DNA of 64,000 nt. It comes from an uncultured Psychroserpens sp. (lineage in GTDB: Bacteria > Bacteroidota > Bacteroidia > Flavobacteriales > Flavobacteriaceae). Below, piece after piece: positions 10,344 through 16,950 of the stretch. Both the position numbers and the translations under genes were made by a program. The notes under the pieces were generated by a model. It worked only from the letters and a program-made list of their open reading frames with translations, searched no databases and was not told the origin of the DNA. Within the stretch, counting starts at the first letter, position 1; the number at the start of each line of letters is the position of its first letter. The stretch covers positions 62,001 through 126,000 of the forward strand of contig NZ_CANMRL010000004.1 of the NCBI RefSeq assembly GCF_947500255.1, given 5' to 3'.

Positions 10344-10376
10344 AATAACACAGACATTAAAAGTTTGAGTAAAAAA

Positions 10377-10400
10377 CCTCCCTACTTTTAAATAAGGAGG
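10377..10400 (-). terminator. hairpin terminator after T9SS protein gene
   Basis: On the minus strand GGAGG...CCTCC (5 pairs, extended weakly past one mismatch) is followed by TTTTTT. It is placed 113 bases after the stop of the gene at 10514-11350. Confidence 0.55.
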
Positions 10401-10513
10401 CATTACTAAGCAACCATTTTTGCCCCTTTTAATCATAAATAGTTACTTTGGCTATTAATTAATCCAATTCTTAAGGGGAAATTTGGGGATTAAAAGACTT
10501 GAACATTCAATTC

Positions 10514-11350
10514 TTATTTTTTTAAAAGTTTTATCATTTTGTATTTTCCACTATTGCTGTACAACTTCACAAAATATAATGCAGATTGTAATTGACTTAT
10601 ATCTATTTTTTGAAATTGGTTATCAATTAACATCACCATTTTTCCATTTACATTGTAGATTTCTACTTGATTAATAATGATGTTGGTTGAAACAATAGTT
10701 ATTTCATGTTGTGCAGGATTTGGATATAATGAAATATCTAAGTCTTCTGTTACCGTTTCTATAGAAAGTGTATCAAAACTAAATGCCATCGTTCCGCTTA
10801 CGATATTAAATTCATTAGAGAAATTTACAGTAGCATCATCGGTAACATCAATTTGCATAAAAGCGTCTAAAGATCCATTAAGCGCTGGGTGACTCGCTAA
10901 GTTTGAGTCATTTTCTAACAACCTAATCTCACCTGATGTGGGTGTTCCATTAACTGTGATTGTTACCAAAGGAATAATAACTCCATTTCCATGGGGACTT
11001 AATGTTCCTCCTGAGGTATCTGTTGTAATTAAAAACAACTCTTTATCTGCCATACTTGCATCTAATCCTGCAACATTAGTTCCTGGTATAGGCGTTACTG
11101 TTTCACTAGTTCCTGCTGGTAGGGCTTGATCTACTGTTATCGAAATACCATCTGGCAAGACCAATACAAAGCCATAAGACTGTGTGATGGGTTGAAAACT
11201 TCCTGAATCAAATTGAGACACTGCGGCTACTGTAAAATTATAGTTGCTATTTTGTATCAATGTAAAATCATAATTTTGAGATATACTTTTTGTTGATAGC
11301 ATACTCATTATTAGTACAACTATCATTTTTAAAGGGGTAATTTGTTTCAT
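10514..11350 (-). CDS. small T9SS type A sorted protein with cohesin-like beta-sandwich
   Basis: ATG 11350 gives 278 residues with a signal peptide ending near STKSIS-Q. Residues about 25-190 form one beta-rich domain with short alternating strands (SYGFVLVLPDGISITV, GVIIPLVTITV, GEIRLLEND), reminiscent of cohesin or related immunoglobulin-like folds. The last about 75 residues are a T9SS type A sorting domain: SLYPNPAQHEITI, VEIYNVNGKMV, LYFVKLYS, ending KLLKK. It is therefore exported by the type IX system and attached or released at the surface. It is downstream of and co-directional with the beta-helix gene (87-base gap). The cohesin comparison is by eye and unproven. Confidence 0.8.
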   Translation of the reverse strand: MKQITPLKMIVVLIMSMLSTKSISQNYDFTLIQNSNYNFTVAAVSQFDSGSFQPITQSYGFVLVLPDGISITVDQALPAGTSETVTPIPGTNVAGLDASMADKELFLITTDTSGGTLSPHGNGVIIPLVTITVNGTPTSGEIRLLENDSNLASHPALNGSLDAFMQIDVTDDATVNFSNEFNIVSGTMAFSFDTLSIETVTEDLDISLYPNPAQHEITIVSTNIIINQVEIYNVNGKMVMLIDNQFQKIDISQLQSALYFVKLYSNSGKYKMIKLLKK

Positions 11351-11360
11351 ATTAACTGAT

Positions 11361-11374
11361 TTAAAAGGGTTAAA
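11361..11374 (-). promoter_or_regulatory. TTTAACCCTTTTAA leader box before the T9SS gene
   Basis: Reading the minus strand, TTTAACCCTTTTAA lies 10 bases before the start codon at 11350. A near-identical box stands directly before the beta-helix gene (14785-14798) and a related one before the regulator (16864-16876). Its role is unknown. Confidence 0.4.
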
Positions 11375-11437
11375 CACATTGTTAAATTTTATTTTTCTTT
11401 TTCGTTGTATATATATATAGTTTGAGGTGTCATAGGA

Positions 11438-14400
11438 TTAATGTTTTGATTGTTCAAATTCATTTCTTCGTTCCATATAACGTCCGACGTTTCCATTAAC
11501 ATTTTCTGGTAATTGTTCTACAATAGGCCAGGTACTCAATCCTAAAAAGTTTCCCGGAAAACCAATCACGTTCTGTAAAATGAATGGTAATTCTGAATCA
11601 CCTCCTGCATACTGAATGATTCCATTCATATTGATATCGTTCTTTGAGTATCCGTTGACCGAATGTGTGGGTAAATTCAAGAAGTTTCCTGAATCATTTA
11701 GTGCATATGATAATATACTTGGGTTATCAGGAATTCCTCCAGAGTATTGTATGATACCATCATTATTGGCATCACCAGCCCACATACTCGAAATATCTTC
11801 TGGCATACCATAAGTCGATTGAGCATTTGTACCATAGGTAATGTCATTATTAGCATCTGCAAAGTCAACCAAGACTGAACTATTATTTATTGTAATAGGA
11901 GATGCAGTCATAATCCCTAAATGATTACGATGCTTTATGACTATGTAATAATCTCCATTAGGGACAGAAGGTCTCAAATTATTTTGTCCGTTAACGCCTA
12001 AAATGTAGCCACTACGATTTAACAATGCTGACTGACCATGTACTACAATTGTGTTATCGTCTACGTCTCTAAACTCCACCCATATCCAATCGACAATACT
12101 CTCGTCATCAATAGCCGCAAAAACACTGTCATCACAGGTCAATCCATCTGAATAAGGACTGGTGGTAGGAATTAAATCAGAAACTCTCAAATCGTCTCGC
12201 ATCAAGTTCTCTTCATCCTCATTCGTACTTCGATTAAGCGCAGCACCTTGCAAAAATACACGACCCCGAAAAAGAGGTGGCGTAAACTCTACAGCTCCAA
12301 TATCATAACCACCATCTTGATTTCTAGGATTCCCTATCTGATCTGTAGATTCCGAAGAGTTTCCATTGTTATAAGCTGGGCTATTTTCATAAAATAGATG
12401 GCTCAATGTATTACCACCATTATCCGTCAATGGTACTAACAATGGGTCATCTACACCTACAATATTATTATCAGTACCGTCAGTTATGGCTGTTCCAGTA
12501 CCTATAATATTGTAGCTACTTCCTTCTGCGAAATCATGAAATGCTAAATCTGCGGGAATATCTTCAGCTGTATTACCAGAAATTATTGAATTATGTGCCG
12601 TCCATGTTGTGCTATTGAGAGCACCTTGATGGCTTATGGCTGCCGAATCTCCTGAGCCTTCAGTTGTATTATTGGTTATCGTACTATTAGTAATGATCAT
12701 TGTGGTGGTGCGTCCTGAATTTGTACGCGTTTCAATCGCTGAACCTCCAGTTGGCGCTGTGTTTCCACTAACTGTGGAATTATTTATGATAAAGGTTTGA
12801 CTTGATGATGAATTTGAAGCCCAAACTATAAGTGCCTCTGCACCTGAGTTGTTAACAATTGCTGAATTATTGATATTTAATGTTCCGGCTTCGCTCTCTA
12901 TAGCAGCACCATAACTAGCACTATTATCTCTGAGTGTCACTCCATCTAAGTTGATAGTACCTGTCCATGAAGAGATACCACCACCATTAGGCGATGTGCA
13001 CGACGCAATTGTTACGTTGTTTAAAGTCGTTGTGTTAGTCCCCAATAACAGGATACCACCACCATAGGTTGTATACGGACCTTGTATAGTTGAAGAATTA
13101 CCATTGGCAATGGTTAAATCGCTTATACTTAAATTTAAATGTGCAAAACCATTGTAGAATACTCTTGAAGCGTTGTTACCATCAATAGTCAATAAATCCT
13201 GGCCTGGTCCTTGAATAATCAATGAGCCTCCAAATCCTCCAGCCGCTCCAACTTCCATCTGACCAAAAAGCACGGGAGACGATGTATTATTTGGATCTTG
13301 ATATTCTGGTGCTCTAACCATAATGGTTTGAGGTGAATTAAATAGTGATGAAAATTCAATAACATCTGTTCCTGAATCGTTATTAGCTGCTATAAATGCT
13401 TCTCTAAGTGAACAATCCGTATCACAAACACCATCATTAGTATCTTCTGTTTTAGTCACGACATAACTCCCCACAGATTGTAGCTCAATAGAACCAATAT
13501 CGGATGTACCAAAAATACCTCTGGCATTACCAACCTGATCGGTAGTAAGGCTTGTAAATCCTTCATTTAATACAGGACTATTCCCATACGGCGTATGGCT
13601 AAGTGTATTACCTCCATTATCGGCTAAAGGAGTCAACAATGGGTCATTGACATTTAGAATATTATTTGGCCCGGCAATTTGGGTAGCACCTGTTCCAATA
13701 AGATTATAATCACTATCAGCATCAAACAAATCTGAACCAATATCTGAAGGTGAGCCGTTTGCTAGGTTCCCTGAAACAATAGAATTATCCATAGTTCCAT
13801 CAATTGTGCCTGTTCCACCAAAAGTAATTGCAGCACCAGCTACACCATCACTTCCTGAGGTATTGTTGGTAATCGTATTACTGTTTATATTATGTATTTG
13901 CGTTCGCCCTCCGTTGGTAATAAATTCAATCGCCGAAGCGCCACTTGGTGTAGTATTTCCACTAATGGTCGAATTTTCCATTTTAAAATCAACATCTGCA
14001 ATATTAGCATGCATTCGTATGGGCGAACTTCCTGTATTGCCATAAATTGCAGAATTCTTGATCTCGAAAATCCTTCCTTCCTCTTCGATTGCCGAACCGT
14101 ATCCATCAGAATGATTATTTCTAAGAGTAACGCCATCTAGATACATATTACCACCGTAAGATGAGATTGCTCCACCTCTAAGGGCCTGGCAATTTTCAAT
14201 GGTGACATTAACCAATCGACAATAAGATCCCGGATCTCCACCTAATTTCATGATACCACCACCCCATTGTGGATAAGGTTGGCTGTCATTGTCGGTTCCT
14301 GGCTGATCGGGTTTTCCATTAGTTATAGTTAAGTTATTGATCTCAACATCTATATGTCCAAACCCAGCATAAAATACTCTATGCTGTAAATTACCATCAA

Positions 14401-14782
14401 TAGTTAATAGGTCTTGACCTGGTCCATTAATAATATAATCACCTCCATGACCTCCAGAAGGTGGTCCGATCTCGAGTTGTCCAAGTGTCAAGGTGATGGT
14501 TCTAGGTGTGTCAAAATACGGAGAGGCAAAATTTATAATATTGTCTCCATTGGCTAGGTAAGCAGCTTTTAGTGCTTCCCTCAATGAGCAGTCTGCAGTA
14601 TCACACACACCGTCATCGGTGTCTTCAACTTTGGTAACTGTAAATGTTTGAGCTTGTAACTGAAAGACCATAAGCATAAAAGCTACAAAAGTTAATAGAA
14701 GTCGATTGTTTAAACCGAAAAAAGGGGCATTCATAATTTTTAATATGTTACTCAGTGAATAAATTGAGAAATAATTTTTCAT
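11438..14782 (-). CDS. CSLREA-domain right-handed beta-helix surface protein with dockerin-like C-terminus
   Basis: The 1114-residue secreted protein has a long N-region and signal peptide ending FQLQAQ (residue about 45); ATG 14734 is an alternative start. Two homologous halves each begin with a CSLREA motif (CDTADCSLREA near 60, CDTDCSLREA near 450), run through parallel beta-helix repeats rich in NNSTISGNT-like rungs, and end with a choice-of-anchor-Q-like GNPRNQDGGYDIGAVEF segment. From about 835 comes a Bacteroidota C-terminal module (FLQGAALN...MRDDLR), then two calcium-loop repeats, GDANNDGIIQYSGG (about 1002) and DINMNGIIQYAGG (about 1052). There is no T9SS sorting domain at the C-terminus, which is unusual for such a protein. 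Confidence 0.85.
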   Translation of the reverse strand: MKNYFSIYSLSNILKIMNAPFFGLNNRLLLTFVAFMLMVFQLQAQTFTVTKVEDTDDGVCDTADCSLREALKAAYLANGDNIINFASPYFDTPRTITLTLGQLEIGPPSGGHGGDYIINGPGQDLLTIDGNLQHRVFYAGFGHIDVEINNLTITNGKPDQPGTDNDSQPYPQWGGGIMKLGGDPGSYCRLVNVTIENCQALRGGAISSYGGNMYLDGVTLRNNHSDGYGSAIEEEGRIFEIKNSAIYGNTGSSPIRMHANIADVDFKMENSTISGNTTPSGASAIEFITNGGRTQIHNINSNTITNNTSGSDGVAGAAITFGGTGTIDGTMDNSIVSGNLANGSPSDIGSDLFDADSDYNLIGTGATQIAGPNNILNVNDPLLTPLADNGGNTLSHTPYGNSPVLNEGFTSLTTDQVGNARGIFGTSDIGSIELQSVGSYVVTKTEDTNDGVCDTDCSLREAFIAANNDSGTDVIEFSSLFNSPQTIMVRAPEYQDPNNTSSPVLFGQMEVGAAGGFGGSLIIQGPGQDLLTIDGNNASRVFYNGFAHLNLSISDLTIANGNSSTIQGPYTTYGGGILLLGTNTTTLNNVTIASCTSPNGGGISSWTGTINLDGVTLRDNSASYGAAIESEAGTLNINNSAIVNNSGAEALIVWASNSSSSQTFIINNSTVSGNTAPTGGSAIETRTNSGRTTTMIITNSTITNNTTEGSGDSAAISHQGALNSTTWTAHNSIISGNTAEDIPADLAFHDFAEGSSYNIIGTGTAITDGTDNNIVGVDDPLLVPLTDNGGNTLSHLFYENSPAYNNGNSSESTDQIGNPRNQDGGYDIGAVEFTPPLFRGRVFLQGAALNRSTNEDEENLMRDDLRVSDLIPTTSPYSDGLTCDDSVFAAIDDESIVDWIWVEFRDVDDNTIVVHGQSALLNRSGYILGVNGQNNLRPSVPNGDYYIVIKHRNHLGIMTASPITINNSSVLVDFADANNDITYGTNAQSTYGMPEDISSMWAGDANNDGIIQYSGGIPDNPSILSYALNDSGNFLNLPTHSVNGYSKNDINMNGIIQYAGGDSELPFILQNVIGFPGNFLGLSTWPIVEQLPENVNGNVGRYMERRNEFEQSKH

Positions 14783-14784
14783 AA

Positions 14785-14798
14785 TTAAAAGGGTTTAA
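14785..14798 (-). promoter_or_regulatory. TTAAACCCTTTTAA leader box before the beta-helix gene
   Basis: On the minus strand TTAAACCCTTTTAA ends two bases before ATG 14782. It matches the box before the T9SS gene at 11361-11374 and partly matches the half-site of the TTTTGTAACCC repeats further upstream. Confidence 0.4.
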
Positions 14799-14846
14799 TT
14801 TTTTGATAAAATTATATGAAGGCACCTCCTTTAGAAGAAATCCAAA

Positions 14847-14900
14847 GGCTTACAAAAGGGTTACATGAAAGAAATACAGGGTTACAAAAGGGTTACAAAA
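14847..14900 (-). repeat. four direct repeats of TTTTGTAACCC, candidate operator
   Basis: On the plus strand the units are GGCTTACAAAA (14847), GGGTTACATGA (14858), GGGTTACAAAA (14879) and GGGTTACAAAA (14890). The spacings are 11, 21 and 11 bases, so all lie on about one face of the helix. They are 65-118 bases upstream of the beta-helix start at 14782. Two identical units occur upstream of the adjacent regulator gene (16929-16950) and none was noticed elsewhere in the window. Confidence 0.7.
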
Positions 14901-14952
14901 GCTTCGTAAAAAAAGACCTAACCCCTATAAATACTGAGTTTTTTGACATATT

Positions 14953-16863
14953 TTAATAGGACAATAAAAATGCGTATAAATCTTCTCCAGGTGTAAGGTT
15001 TAGTTTTTTGCGTAATCGATTACGACTCATTTTAACTGATGACGGATTGATATTTTGAAGAATAGCTATTTGTTTTGTGTCCATTTTCATCCTGATTAAT
15101 GAACACAATCTAATTTCGGTTTTTGTTAGATCGGGATAATTACTTCTTAGCTTTTCATAAAACGAACTACTTAAAGTTTCTATCTTATTATGAAAATCTT
15201 CCGTACTCTCGTCTACCCAGATTTTATTTTTAATTTCTGTCTCCAGATTCATCAACTCTTTAGATCTTTTTTTCCCCGTAGAGGCTTTAACTCTTTCCAA
15301 TTGTTCTGATAAGGTTAATGCCCATTCTTTATTATTTGTTATATCTAATGCCAAATGCTTTAGATCTTTTTGCTTATGTTCTATTTCAGAACTTAGCAGC
15401 TCATTTTCTAAAACTTTTAGTTTTAACCTTTGTTTATAACGTGCATAAAAAAAGATGAATATCGCTAAAATGCTAATTCCTCCAAAAAGCATCCATTGTT
15501 GTTTAATTTTGTTTTGCTCATCTAAGATTTCTATTTCGGACTCTTGTTGAGCTATTTCGGCCTGTTGTTGTTGAATTTCAGATTCTTGTCGTTCAGTTTC
15601 ATAAAGTGTTTGGTAATACGATAAGGCATTCGCTCTTTTAACACTATTGATAGAGTCTCTTACCGTAACAAAATCTACATAGTGCGTATGAGATTTTTCA
15701 ATATTGCCTAAAGCCTTATAAATTTTTGACAACCTTTCATCCATATGGTATTTACCCCAAACATTTCCTATTCTTTTGTGATAATTCAACACCCAATATC
15801 CTTCGTCTAACGCCTTATTAAATTCTTTAGTTGCAATGTAATAGTCTGCCAAAGCTGTTCTGTAATGAGATTCATTAGGTATTGGGTGTTGTTTTGCAAA
15901 ACTGTTTTGTATTTTGTCAAAAAAATACGTGGCTTTACTTAGACTATCAGTTACAGCATAAGCATTTAAAAGTCCGTAAAATATGATTGGTTTATTTGGC
16001 AAATCATAATCAGGCTCTGTAACATGCTTATAGGCTTCCTTTAAATAACTAATTCTCGCGATTTGATTACCTTGAAAGTTTTGCTCTAAAGCTGCATTAA
16101 ATAGGTTTGGAATCAATGATAAGTGGTCATGTCTATGGCGAGCAATAGCAATAGTTTTGTCTCTTTCCTTTTTCGCTTCTTCTGTAAAACCTATTTTAGT
16201 ATATAAAGTCGCTAATTGATTTCTGGTCCATAATAAATTAGACGTATCCTTAGCTCTAACAAATATTTGTGATGTTTCTAAAAGTAGTTTAGATGCTGTA
16301 GCGTAATCTCCGGTCACGTCGTAAACTCCAGATTTGTACGATCGTGCTAAAGCATAGGATATAGAATCATTGGCTTTAAGAGAAAACTTTTCGGCTGTAT
16401 TATATAAATCCAGAGACTCATTTGTTTTTCCTGAAAAATAATAACTATCTGCAGCATTTGTATAAAGCCGTCCTAAAAGATCATAATCTTTACTGTTTGT
16501 TTTTCTTGCTTTAAAATCTTCAAAGACTTTCACTCCAGCTTGTGCATTAGAAGCTCTATTAGCATAATAAAACATAAGGCTGGAAGTGTGTCTCAATGCC
16601 ATATTGATTGAATCCAACTGGTAAGCATAATCTATAGTTATTTTAGCAATAGAATCGAAACTATATTTTGTTTTATTATTGACAAGCCTTGAAAGGCTAT
16701 CCAACAATTTAAGTCGTTTTCCTTCTGTAGAGGATTCAATTTTTTGCTTTAGTTCTTTAACCTTTCGGTCTAGAGATTCTTTGGTAAGGTCATTGCTATT
16801 TGTTTGAGCAAAAAAAGATTGGCATAATAGCACAAAAAAGAAGCCTATGAAAAAACGTTTCAT
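14953..16863 (-). CDS. membrane-bound TPR regulator with C-terminal LuxR-like HTH
   Basis: ATG 16863 is preferred (636 residues): it starts a clean signal peptide (MKRFFIGFFFVLLCQSFFAQ) and lies right after a TTTAAA box like that of two neighbours; ATG 16881 would add MYTPFK. Residues about 60-400 are TPR helices in the periplasm, followed by a Gln/Glu-rich coiled coil, one transmembrane helix (WMLFGGISILAIFIFFYARYK), a second coiled coil, and a C-terminal HTH (LTKTEIRLCSLI...ILQNINPSSVKMSRNRLRKKL). This is a one-component transmembrane regulator. Repeats of TTTTGTAACCC precede both it and the beta-helix gene downstream, suggesting self-regulation and control of that gene. Confidence 0.85.
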   Translation of the reverse strand: MKRFFIGFFFVLLCQSFFAQTNSNDLTKESLDRKVKELKQKIESSTEGKRLKLLDSLSRLVNNKTKYSFDSIAKITIDYAYQLDSINMALRHTSSLMFYYANRASNAQAGVKVFEDFKARKTNSKDYDLLGRLYTNAADSYYFSGKTNESLDLYNTAEKFSLKANDSISYALARSYKSGVYDVTGDYATASKLLLETSQIFVRAKDTSNLLWTRNQLATLYTKIGFTEEAKKERDKTIAIARHRHDHLSLIPNLFNAALEQNFQGNQIARISYLKEAYKHVTEPDYDLPNKPIIFYGLLNAYAVTDSLSKATYFFDKIQNSFAKQHPIPNESHYRTALADYYIATKEFNKALDEGYWVLNYHKRIGNVWGKYHMDERLSKIYKALGNIEKSHTHYVDFVTVRDSINSVKRANALSYYQTLYETERQESEIQQQQAEIAQQESEIEILDEQNKIKQQWMLFGGISILAIFIFFYARYKQRLKLKVLENELLSSEIEHKQKDLKHLALDITNNKEWALTLSEQLERVKASTGKKRSKELMNLETEIKNKIWVDESTEDFHNKIETLSSSFYEKLRSNYPDLTKTEIRLCSLIRMKMDTKQIAILQNINPSSVKMSRNRLRKKLNLTPGEDLYAFLLSY

Positions 16864-16928
16864 TTTAAAGGGGGTATACATTTATAGTATAAATGTATAA
16901 AAACAGTTTTTGTTTAATTAATTGCATA

Positions 16929-16950
16929 GGGTTACAAAAGGGTTACAAAA
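16929..16950 (-). repeat. two direct repeats of TTTTGTAACCC upstream of regulator
   Basis: Two perfect tandem copies of GGGTTACAAAA on the plus strand (16929-16939 and 16940-16950), the same unit and 11-base phase as at 14879-14900. They lie 66-87 bases upstream of ATG 16863. Candidate autoregulatory operator. Confidence 0.7.

What the first reader, a model, noticed from the sequence alone, without database searches (positions are those of the whole stretch)
10514..16950. Candidate undescribed surface-display locus: cohesin-like T9SS anchor, dockerin-like beta-helix protein and its regulator
Seen: three adjacent minus-strand genes. The first product is a small protein with one beta-sandwich and a T9SS type A sorting domain. 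The second is a large beta-helix protein that lacks any T9SS domain and ends in two calcium-loop repeats (GDANNDGIIQY, DINMNGIIQY). The third is a membrane-bound TPR/HTH regulator. Known: cohesin-dockerin pairs attach proteins that lack their own anchor, and dockerins are paired calcium-loop repeats. Inference: the small protein could be the anchor that holds the beta-helix protein at the surface, with expression set by the regulator. That would be a T9SS analogue of a cellulosome-type attachment. The cohesin comparison is by eye only.
Basis: partly seen in the sequence, partly recalled or inferred. Interest (0 to 1): 0.75.

Follow-up and report, generated by a model that had tools for sequence, protein, structure and literature searches.

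The report
Bacteroidota T9SS cohesin–dockerin display pair
Two neighbouring genes appear to encode a lock-and-key pair, a small surface anchor and a large protein with a matching plug at its end, and the same pairing recurs with different large proteins in other Bacteroidota, which suggests a general way to attach proteins that lack an anchor of their own to the outside of these bacteria.

Summary
The small protein (10514-11350, -) has a beta-sandwich and a T9SS type A tail. The CSLREA/beta-helix protein (11438-14782, -) has no T9SS tail and ends in a 278-aa domain with two calcium-loop repeats. This genome has four such domains and four such anchors; 4 of 4 are adjacent, domain first. In 120 genomes drawn from the family, 9 have the anchor, 14 the domain, 8 both (P 3e-8). 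Of 192 non-redundant domain genes with a readable neighbour, 90 are followed by a T9SS-tailed gene, against 12 of 665 other genes. The anchor's predicted fold is nearest to cohesins (15 of the top 20 chains, but TM-scores below 0.5). Relatives' tails match Pfam Dockerin_1 (7 of 12); relatives' sandwiches match Pfam Cohesin weakly (3 of 13). A joint prediction has pTM 0.77, which implies a placed interface. One relative fuses domain, sandwich and T9SS tail; others chain sandwich...domain proteins. Best reading: a cohesin–dockerin-type attachment anchored by T9SS. Binding is not shown. The regulator is an optional neighbour.

The parts
10514..11350 (-). anchor gene: signal peptide (by eye), cohesin-like beta-sandwich, T9SS type A C-terminal domain (GTG start at 11377 also possible)
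10739..11278 (-). cohesin-like beta-sandwich (180 aa)
   Evidence: AlphaFold2 pLDDT 89.8, pTM 0.84; Foldseek ranks 1-7 cohesin 4n2o, 15 of top 20 chains cohesins, TM-scores under 0.5
10517..10729 (-). T9SS type A sorting domain
   Evidence: TIGR04183 E 6.1e-13 and PF18962 E 1.2e-13
11438..14782 (-). CSLREA / choice-of-anchor-Q beta-helix protein without T9SS domain (1114 aa), the presumed displayed cargo
11441..12274 (-). C-terminal 278-aa domain: about 165-aa module plus two dockerin-like repeats
   Evidence: 4 places in the genome, in 35 of 295 class genomes and 14 of 120 family genomes; hhalign of window-type domains to relatives' dockerin tails prob 97.3, E 1.7e-11
11567..11773 (-). two calcium-loop repeats (loops start at D1004 and D1049); far border approximate
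14953..16881 (-). TPR / membrane / HTH regulator, optional neighbour
   Evidence: TPR_12 over cut-off, GerE E 0.005 below cut-off; similar HTH ends upstream of L009 and some other domain genes
10376..10401 (-). terminator-like hairpin after the anchor gene; none found on this strand between cargo and anchor genes
   Evidence: 11 pairs, T-rich tail; consensus match only

Best explanation
The two genes encode a cohesin–dockerin-type attachment pair adapted to the type IX secretion system. The large beta-helix protein carries no sorting signal and ends in a plug (an approximately 165-aa module plus two dockerin-like calcium-loop repeats). The small protein is a stand-alone cohesin-like receptor with a T9SS type A tail, by which it would be exported and fixed at the surface. 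The plug binds the receptor and so holds the cargo outside. Shown by sequence: the parts, their pairing, their recurrence with different cargo, one natural fusion. Predicted: the cohesin-like fold and the interface. Inferred: calcium dependence, surface location, and the route across the outer membrane (I favour co-export of a complex formed in the periplasm; capture after separate export is the alternative). Where plugs greatly outnumber receptors, several cargos probably share a receptor. The TPR/HTH gene is an optional regulator.
For: Own genome: 4 domains, 4 anchors, 4 of 4 adjacent and in the same order, with three kinds of cargo: beta-helix, M10 peptidase plus LRR, and short 320-aa proteins. 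Family draw: anchor 9, domain 14, both 8 of 120 genomes, P 3e-8; of 14 anchor places 12 directly follow a domain gene, 1 is at a contig edge, 1 is not adjacent. Next gene T9SS-tailed for 90 of 192 domain genes vs 12 of 665 other genes (at least 56 of 158 if all 34 seeds of my tail profile are removed). By that type A profile only 1 of 213 domain proteins has a T9SS tail of its own, and it is the domain+sandwich+tail fusion L245; 0 of 16 domain rows match any NCBIfam family. Fold; rank 1 of the joint model is also a cohesin, 2jh2. Interface: pTM 0.77 over 512 residues (arithmetic). Homology: a profile of 12 relatives' tails hits solved dockerins 2y3n, 2b59, 1ohz, 1daq at E 2e-5 to 8e-5; Pfam Dockerin_1 in 7 of 12 (E<=0.01), Pfam Cohesin in 3 of 13 relatives' sandwiches (E<=0.1, best 0.0034). 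Sequence distances of 45 domain/anchor pairs correlate, r 0.78, 0 of 2000 permutations reach it (not corrected for species descent). In one lineage 10 of 10 genomes hold 3-5 anchor matches; the four of them counted have 13-46 domain matches. The T9SS translocon gene SprA is in the genome.
Against: No binding data. Foldseek E-values are all above 0.001 and TM-scores to solved cohesins are 0.45 at most; GH9 enzymes and a CBM3b (4c8x, 2ylk) are among the hits. The window's own proteins match neither Pfam Cohesin nor Dockerin_1 at E<=1. Window-type anchors show no profile similarity to two other anchor groups, and anchor profiles A7, A9, A10 find no cohesin among solved sequences. In the dockerin profile search the top two hits are cyanovirin dimers and the next two a 'serine protease'. 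69 of 192 domain genes are followed neither by a T9SS-tailed gene nor by another domain gene. The window-type anchor profile rings in only 1 of 295 class genomes while the domain rings in 35. The co-fold used one read-through chain, so the tether may favour contacts; no error matrix, coordinates or non-cognate control were available.
Confidence: 0.78

Rival explanations
1. The 278-aa C-terminal domain is itself an undescribed T9SS sorting or anchoring signal; the small protein is merely a co-expressed T9SS cargo.
For: The domain lies at the very C-terminus (0-37 residues after it in the 78 entries) where a T9SS tail would be, as a sorting signal would.
Against: The repeats are dockerin-like by profile; the next gene carries a T9SS tail far above chance; chains and a fusion of the same two modules exist; the joint fold has a high pTM.
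Confidence: 0.12
2. The small protein is an independent substrate-binding adhesin (CBM3 and cohesin share a fold, as I recall) and the calcium repeats bind something else; the two are an operon of surface proteins, not partners.
For: GH9 enzymes and CBM3b are among the Foldseek hits; co-transcription alone would explain adjacency.
Against: Cargo parts change while the end domain and the sandwich stay together, and their distances correlate; L245 fusion; dockerin homology.
Confidence: 0.07
3. The pair acts only in the periplasm, for example as a folding partner during export, and does not remain together at the surface.
For: Nothing here tests location; export in complex is part of my own favoured mechanism.
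Against: The anchor ends in a T9SS tail; type A proteins are anchored to the surface by covalent linkage to lipopolysaccharide (abstract of PMC9143113).
Confidence: 0.03

Closest known systems
Cohesin–dockerin pairs of clostridial and ruminococcal cellulosomes (PF00963, PF00404)
   Same: Beta-sandwich receptor plus paired calcium-loop plug at the C-terminus of varied cargo; few receptors and many plugs in some genomes; receptor-plug bridging proteins.
   Different: Gram-negative and T9SS-tailed; one sandwich per protein in the 108 protein-profile matches checked; window-type loops carry four extra residues before the conserved acid; the window sequences match neither Pfam model; in seven scanned cargos peptidase, LRR, HYR and lectin domains but no cellulase were recognised.
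Autonomous cohesin of Ruminococcus flavefaciens (4n2o) and Clostridium perfringens cohesin modules (2jh2, 2vo8, 2w1n)
   Same: Closest solved folds; single cohesins outside a scaffoldin (titles of the entries; rest recalled).
   Different: TM-scores below 0.5; no T9SS tail there (recalled).
X-module–dockerin dyad of CipA (2b59, 3kcp; name recalled)
   Same: A conserved module sits directly before the dockerin repeats and travels with them.
   Different: Similarity of the 165-aa module to the X module was not tested.
T9SS type A and type B sorting domains (TIGR04183, TIGR04131), and type B–PorP-like anchoring (PMC9143113, abstract)
   Same: The anchors end in these tails (type A here, type B in L065).
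   Different: The known systems export the protein that carries the tail; here a second protein without a tail would be held, or exported, by it.

Membership tests
Cohesin | nearest solved fold is a cohesin | tested here: met
   ranks 1-7 (seven chains of 4n2o) and 15 of the top 20 chains, 8 entries; rank 1 of the joint model, 2jh2; chains of complexes counted as cohesin by title and length
Cohesin | structural similarity at the usual same-fold level (TM-score 0.5 or more) | tested here: not met
   best TM-score to a listed cohesin 0.45 (2vo8, by target length)
Cohesin | sequence match to PF00963 | tested here: not met
   none for the window protein at E<=1; 3 of 13 relatives of another sandwich group match at E<=0.1, best 0.0034
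Cohesin | binds a dockerin | not testable with these tools
   co-fold pTM 0.77 is a prediction only
Dockerin | two repeats with D-x-N-x-D-G type calcium loops | tested here: met
   56 aligned rows
Dockerin | canonical spacing to the acidic position 12 of the loop | tested here: not met
   in the window type the conserved acid is at position 16; several relatives show the canonical spacing by eye
Dockerin | sequence match to PF00404 or to solved dockerins | tested here: inconclusive
   window protein no; relatives' tails yes, 7 of 12 at E<=0.01 and 2y3n, 2b59, 1ohz; window type to relatives hhalign prob 97.3
Dockerin | calcium binding | not testable with these tools
   no experiment
T9SS type A cargo (anchor gene) | C-terminal TIGR04183/PF18962 domain and signal peptide | tested here: met
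   signal peptide read by eye
T9SS cargo (beta-helix gene) | C-terminal sorting domain of type A, B or C | tested here: not met
Cellulosome | scaffoldin with several cohesins | tested here: not met
   0 of 108 protein-profile matches have more than one separate sandwich (five profiles, loci read only)
Cellulosome | cellulases among the cargo | tested here: inconclusive
   none among seven cargos scanned with Pfam; the rest not scanned

The most novel reading that the evidence does not exclude
A Bacteroidota-wide modular display system in which T9SS exports large proteins that have no sorting signal by carrying them, folded and plugged by a dockerin-like end into a small cohesin-like protein that has the signal; in some lineages sandwich...domain proteins link in a row to build multi-layer surface assemblies, and in others dozens of cargos compete for a few receptors, a Gram-negative counterpart of scaffoldin logic that evolved on T9SS.
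Probability: 0.45. Interest if true: 0.9.

Novelty: new variant of a known kind. Interest (0 to 1): 0.8.

Why it matters
It would give a localisation rule for secreted Bacteroidota proteins that have a signal peptide but no T9SS tail. It would mean T9SS can serve proteins lacking its signal, making the size and folding limits of the translocon testable. It would place cohesin–dockerin recognition on a Gram-negative surface in a phylum for which two papers report such parts as absent in the genomes they treat (passages of PMC5831590, and PMC6247017). It offers new plug-and-socket pairs for protein engineering.

Tried and rejected
The anchor profile from this genome alone (A3) found the anchor in only 1 of 295 class genomes while the domain was in 35. 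Taken at face value this speaks against pairing. Reading the neighbours showed that other anchors are too divergent for that profile.

Lineage f10 (10 genomes) seemed to lack anchors: I recognised none next to the domain genes of its 13 loci, and profile A11 found nothing convincing in 6 genomes (best E 0.149). Reading 20 further loci of two genomes gave three sandwich genes directly after domain genes (L265, L273, L278), and a fourth, overlooked before, stood in L101. Three of the four run off their locus; L265 is T9SS-tailed by my own profile but has no NCBIfam match. Their profile then found 3-5 matches in each of 10 genomes; four of those matches were its own rows.

Searches of solved sequences with anchor profiles A7, A9 and A10 gave no cohesin; window-type anchors and groups A9, A10 are not linked by profile. 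VIA-align was not available. From the regulator count I dropped one pattern hit of another kind (L206), leaving 9 of 10; the pattern is a short HTH motif, TPR repeats were not checked in all. For the co-fold I dropped 13 of 83 alignment rows that showed stray segments when mapped. Neighbour statistic: 21 of 213 domain genes (19 truncated next gene, 2 at an end) were left out of the 192. My T9SS-tail profile is of type A only and was seeded with 34 anchors, which inflates the 90; without any of them at least 56 of 158 remain. The 20 f10 loci came after the count and are not in it. 89 of 99 anchor genes have a domain gene directly upstream, but the loci were mostly fetched through the domain, so I do not use this number. 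Of the six sandwich...domain proteins three were rows of the profile that found them.

Literature: searches (open-licence papers only) showed no T9SS-linked cohesin–dockerin pair in the titles, abstract starts or passages that I saw. Seen as passages: PMC5831590, PMC8810776, PMC3796261, PMC6247017, PMC10202324; outline and abstract: PMC9143113; all others as search listings only. Non-cellulosomal cohesin- and dockerin-like modules in many organisms are recalled from the older literature, not read here.
Full report
What is there. The window holds three minus-strand genes at 10514-11377, 11438-14782 and 14953-16881. The first product has a T9SS type A tail over cut-off in Pfam and NCBIfam; no other Pfam family matches at E<=1. 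The second is a CSLREA / choice-of-anchor-Q beta-helix protein with no T9SS family. Its last 278 residues form a separate domain ending in two repeats that begin D-A-N-N-D-G and D-I-N-M-N-G. The third is a TPR protein with a weak LuxR-type HTH match. A terminator-like hairpin follows the anchor gene and none was found between cargo and anchor on that strand.

Pairing in the same genome. A search with the whole small protein finds 39 places at E<=10, four of which match its sandwich, the others its tail region. A search with the 278-aa domain finds four places. Each domain gene is directly followed by an anchor gene on the same strand. There are three kinds of cargo: the beta-helix here, an M10 peptidase with LRR in L009, and short, mutually similar proteins of 326 and 322 aa in L010 and L011. 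The genome holds 95 matches to TIGR04183 at E<=0.001, so four chance neighbours would be very unlikely. Within the genome, identities of the four domains and four sandwiches rise and fall together. L009 also has a TPR/HTH gene directly upstream; L010 and L011 have other regulators nearby.

Pairing elsewhere. In 120 genomes drawn from the family, profile A3 (anchor) rings in 9 and A2 (domain) in 14, with 8 in common; P 3e-8. Of 14 anchor places 12 follow a domain gene directly, one (G356) lies at a contig edge, one (G390 contig 1) is not adjacent. In the six genomes with the domain only, reading the DNA shows a divergent T9SS-tailed gene after a domain gene in each (G333, G343, G354, G373, G401, G407); NCBIfam confirms the T9SS tail in 8 of 8 of these that I scanned, and in 9 of the 10 proteins of that call, the exception being L265 of lineage f10. 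In 295 class genomes the domain is in 35 and the window-type anchor only in this genome, but several neighbours again are T9SS-tailed sandwich-like proteins of other groups. A search of named genomes kept the best 80 of 572 matches as 77 loci, from Psychroserpens, Kordia, Winogradskyella, Lacinutrix, Aquimarina, Tenacibaculum, Lewinella, Phaeodactylibacter and others; there 45 of 83 domain genes with a readable neighbour are followed by a T9SS-tailed gene and 18 by another domain gene.

Counting all neighbour stretches read up to that point without duplicates: 213 domain genes; next gene T9SS-tailed 90, another domain gene 33, same strand without tail 31, opposite strand 38, truncated 19, at an end 2; control 12 of 665 non-domain genes of the same stretches (Fisher P 1e-53 for 90 of 192). 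The tail profile was seeded with 34 of these anchors, so the fair lower bound is 56 of 158.

Architectures. One of 213 domain proteins carries a type A tail: L245, where domain, sandwich and tail are one chain, a natural fusion of the pair. Six proteins carry a sandwich of group A10 at the N-terminus and the domain at the C-terminus (L070 twice, L072 twice, L078, L089; three of them were rows of that profile), each followed by another sandwich-type gene. In Saprospirales loci the N-terminus of a domain protein is similar to that of the next protein: L249 50% over 193 residues, L250 69% over 204, L257 35% over 238; the domain proteins before them do not show it (two of those three are cut at their start). 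These look like links in a chain. Type B tails replace type A in L065. In G390, 44 domain matches stand against 3 window-type anchors. In lineage f10, four genomes have 46, 20, 15 and 13 domain matches, a few of them fragments, and each of 10 genomes has 3-5 anchor matches (one protein in G154 is split into two matches). No protein with two sandwiches was found among 108 protein-profile matches. Recognised in seven scanned cargos: M10, M43 and M12B peptidases, BspA-type LRR, DUF285, HYR, C-type lectin.

What the parts are. The sandwich alone was predicted with pLDDT 89.8 and pTM 0.84. Foldseek puts seven chains of cohesin 4n2o at ranks 1-7 and cohesins at 15 of the first 20 places (8 entries); four of the other five are GH9 enzymes. 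E-values are 2e-3 and above, and TM-scores under 0.5. The calcium repeats of 12 relatives (A8) match solved dockerins (2y3n 2.2e-5, 2b59 3e-5, 1ohz 7.5e-5), after two cyanovirin dimers and two chains named serine protease; Pfam Dockerin_1 matches 7 of 12. The window-type domain aligns with them at probability 97.3. Relatives' sandwiches of group A10 match Pfam Cohesin in 3 of 13, weakly, and groups A9 and A10 align with each other at probability 92.9. The window-type sandwich has no sequence link to these groups nor to solved cohesins, so its cohesin reading rests on fold and on position.

Interface. Window residues from the domain to the sandwich were predicted as one 512-residue chain through the stop codon, with 70 aligned rows of which 7 besides the window are natural neighbours read through. 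Result: pLDDT 84.4, pTM 0.77, with a poorly predicted linker. With ordinary assumptions, pTM would be about 0.51-0.56 if the two domains were not placed against each other (inter-domain error 15-25 A), and 0.75-0.82 for errors of 5-3 A. This is indirect: coordinates and the error matrix were not available, and no non-cognate control could be run.

Mechanism. Shown: parts, pairing, recurrence, fusion, T9SS translocon gene SprA in the genome. Predicted: cohesin-like fold and interface. Inferred: the cargo, which has a Sec signal (by eye) but no T9SS tail, meets the anchor in the periplasm, is carried through the T9SS pore as a complex, and stays attached outside when the anchor is fixed by its tail. 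Capture of a cargo exported by another route is possible. Plugs without their own receptor would use receptors encoded elsewhere.

Regulator. A gene with this kind of HTH end lies directly upstream of 9 of 138 domain genes against 2 of 712 other genes (one unrelated pattern hit dropped; P 3e-6). It is enriched but not part of the core.

Known or new. Cohesin–dockerin pairs, stand-alone cohesins and T9SS tails are known. I found no paper joining them (open-licence papers only). Two papers state that cohesins or dockerins are absent from Bacteroidetes genomes they treat (passages of PMC5831590, and PMC6247017). I file it as a new variant of a known kind, not as a Pfam Cohesin/Dockerin_1 member, since the window proteins fail those models.

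Noticed in passing
L010 7496-8473 and 10718-12769; L011 7168-9222; also L150, L151, L152, L155, L164: Genes beside several pairs encode proteins beginning 'GINYKA.IKD..GN.V', some with a chaperone-of-endosialidase-like end; a recurring third partner perhaps (by eye).
   Followed up: no
G390 (L160, L174, L177, L178, L180): A genome of the same family with 44 domain matches, five of the domain genes read having an HTH-ended regulator directly upstream, and only three window-type anchors.
   Followed up: partly
L249, L250, L257 (Lewinella, Flavilitoribacter, Phaeodactylibacter): Rows of genes in which a protein with a sandwich-like start and a domain end precedes a protein with a similar start: possible stacked surface assembly.
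   Followed up: partly
L245 1-7494: Single chain with domain, cohesin-like sandwich and T9SS tail, directly followed by another sandwich protein with T9SS tail.
   Followed up: partly
loci of families f61 and f12 (L103-L108): Domain proteins for which no sandwich gene was recognised next door; anchors there not identified.
   Followed up: no
window 11441-12274, residues 1-165 of the domain: The conserved module before the calcium repeats has no Pfam or NCBIfam match although the domain is in 35 of 295 class genomes; its fold was not searched alone.
   Followed up: no
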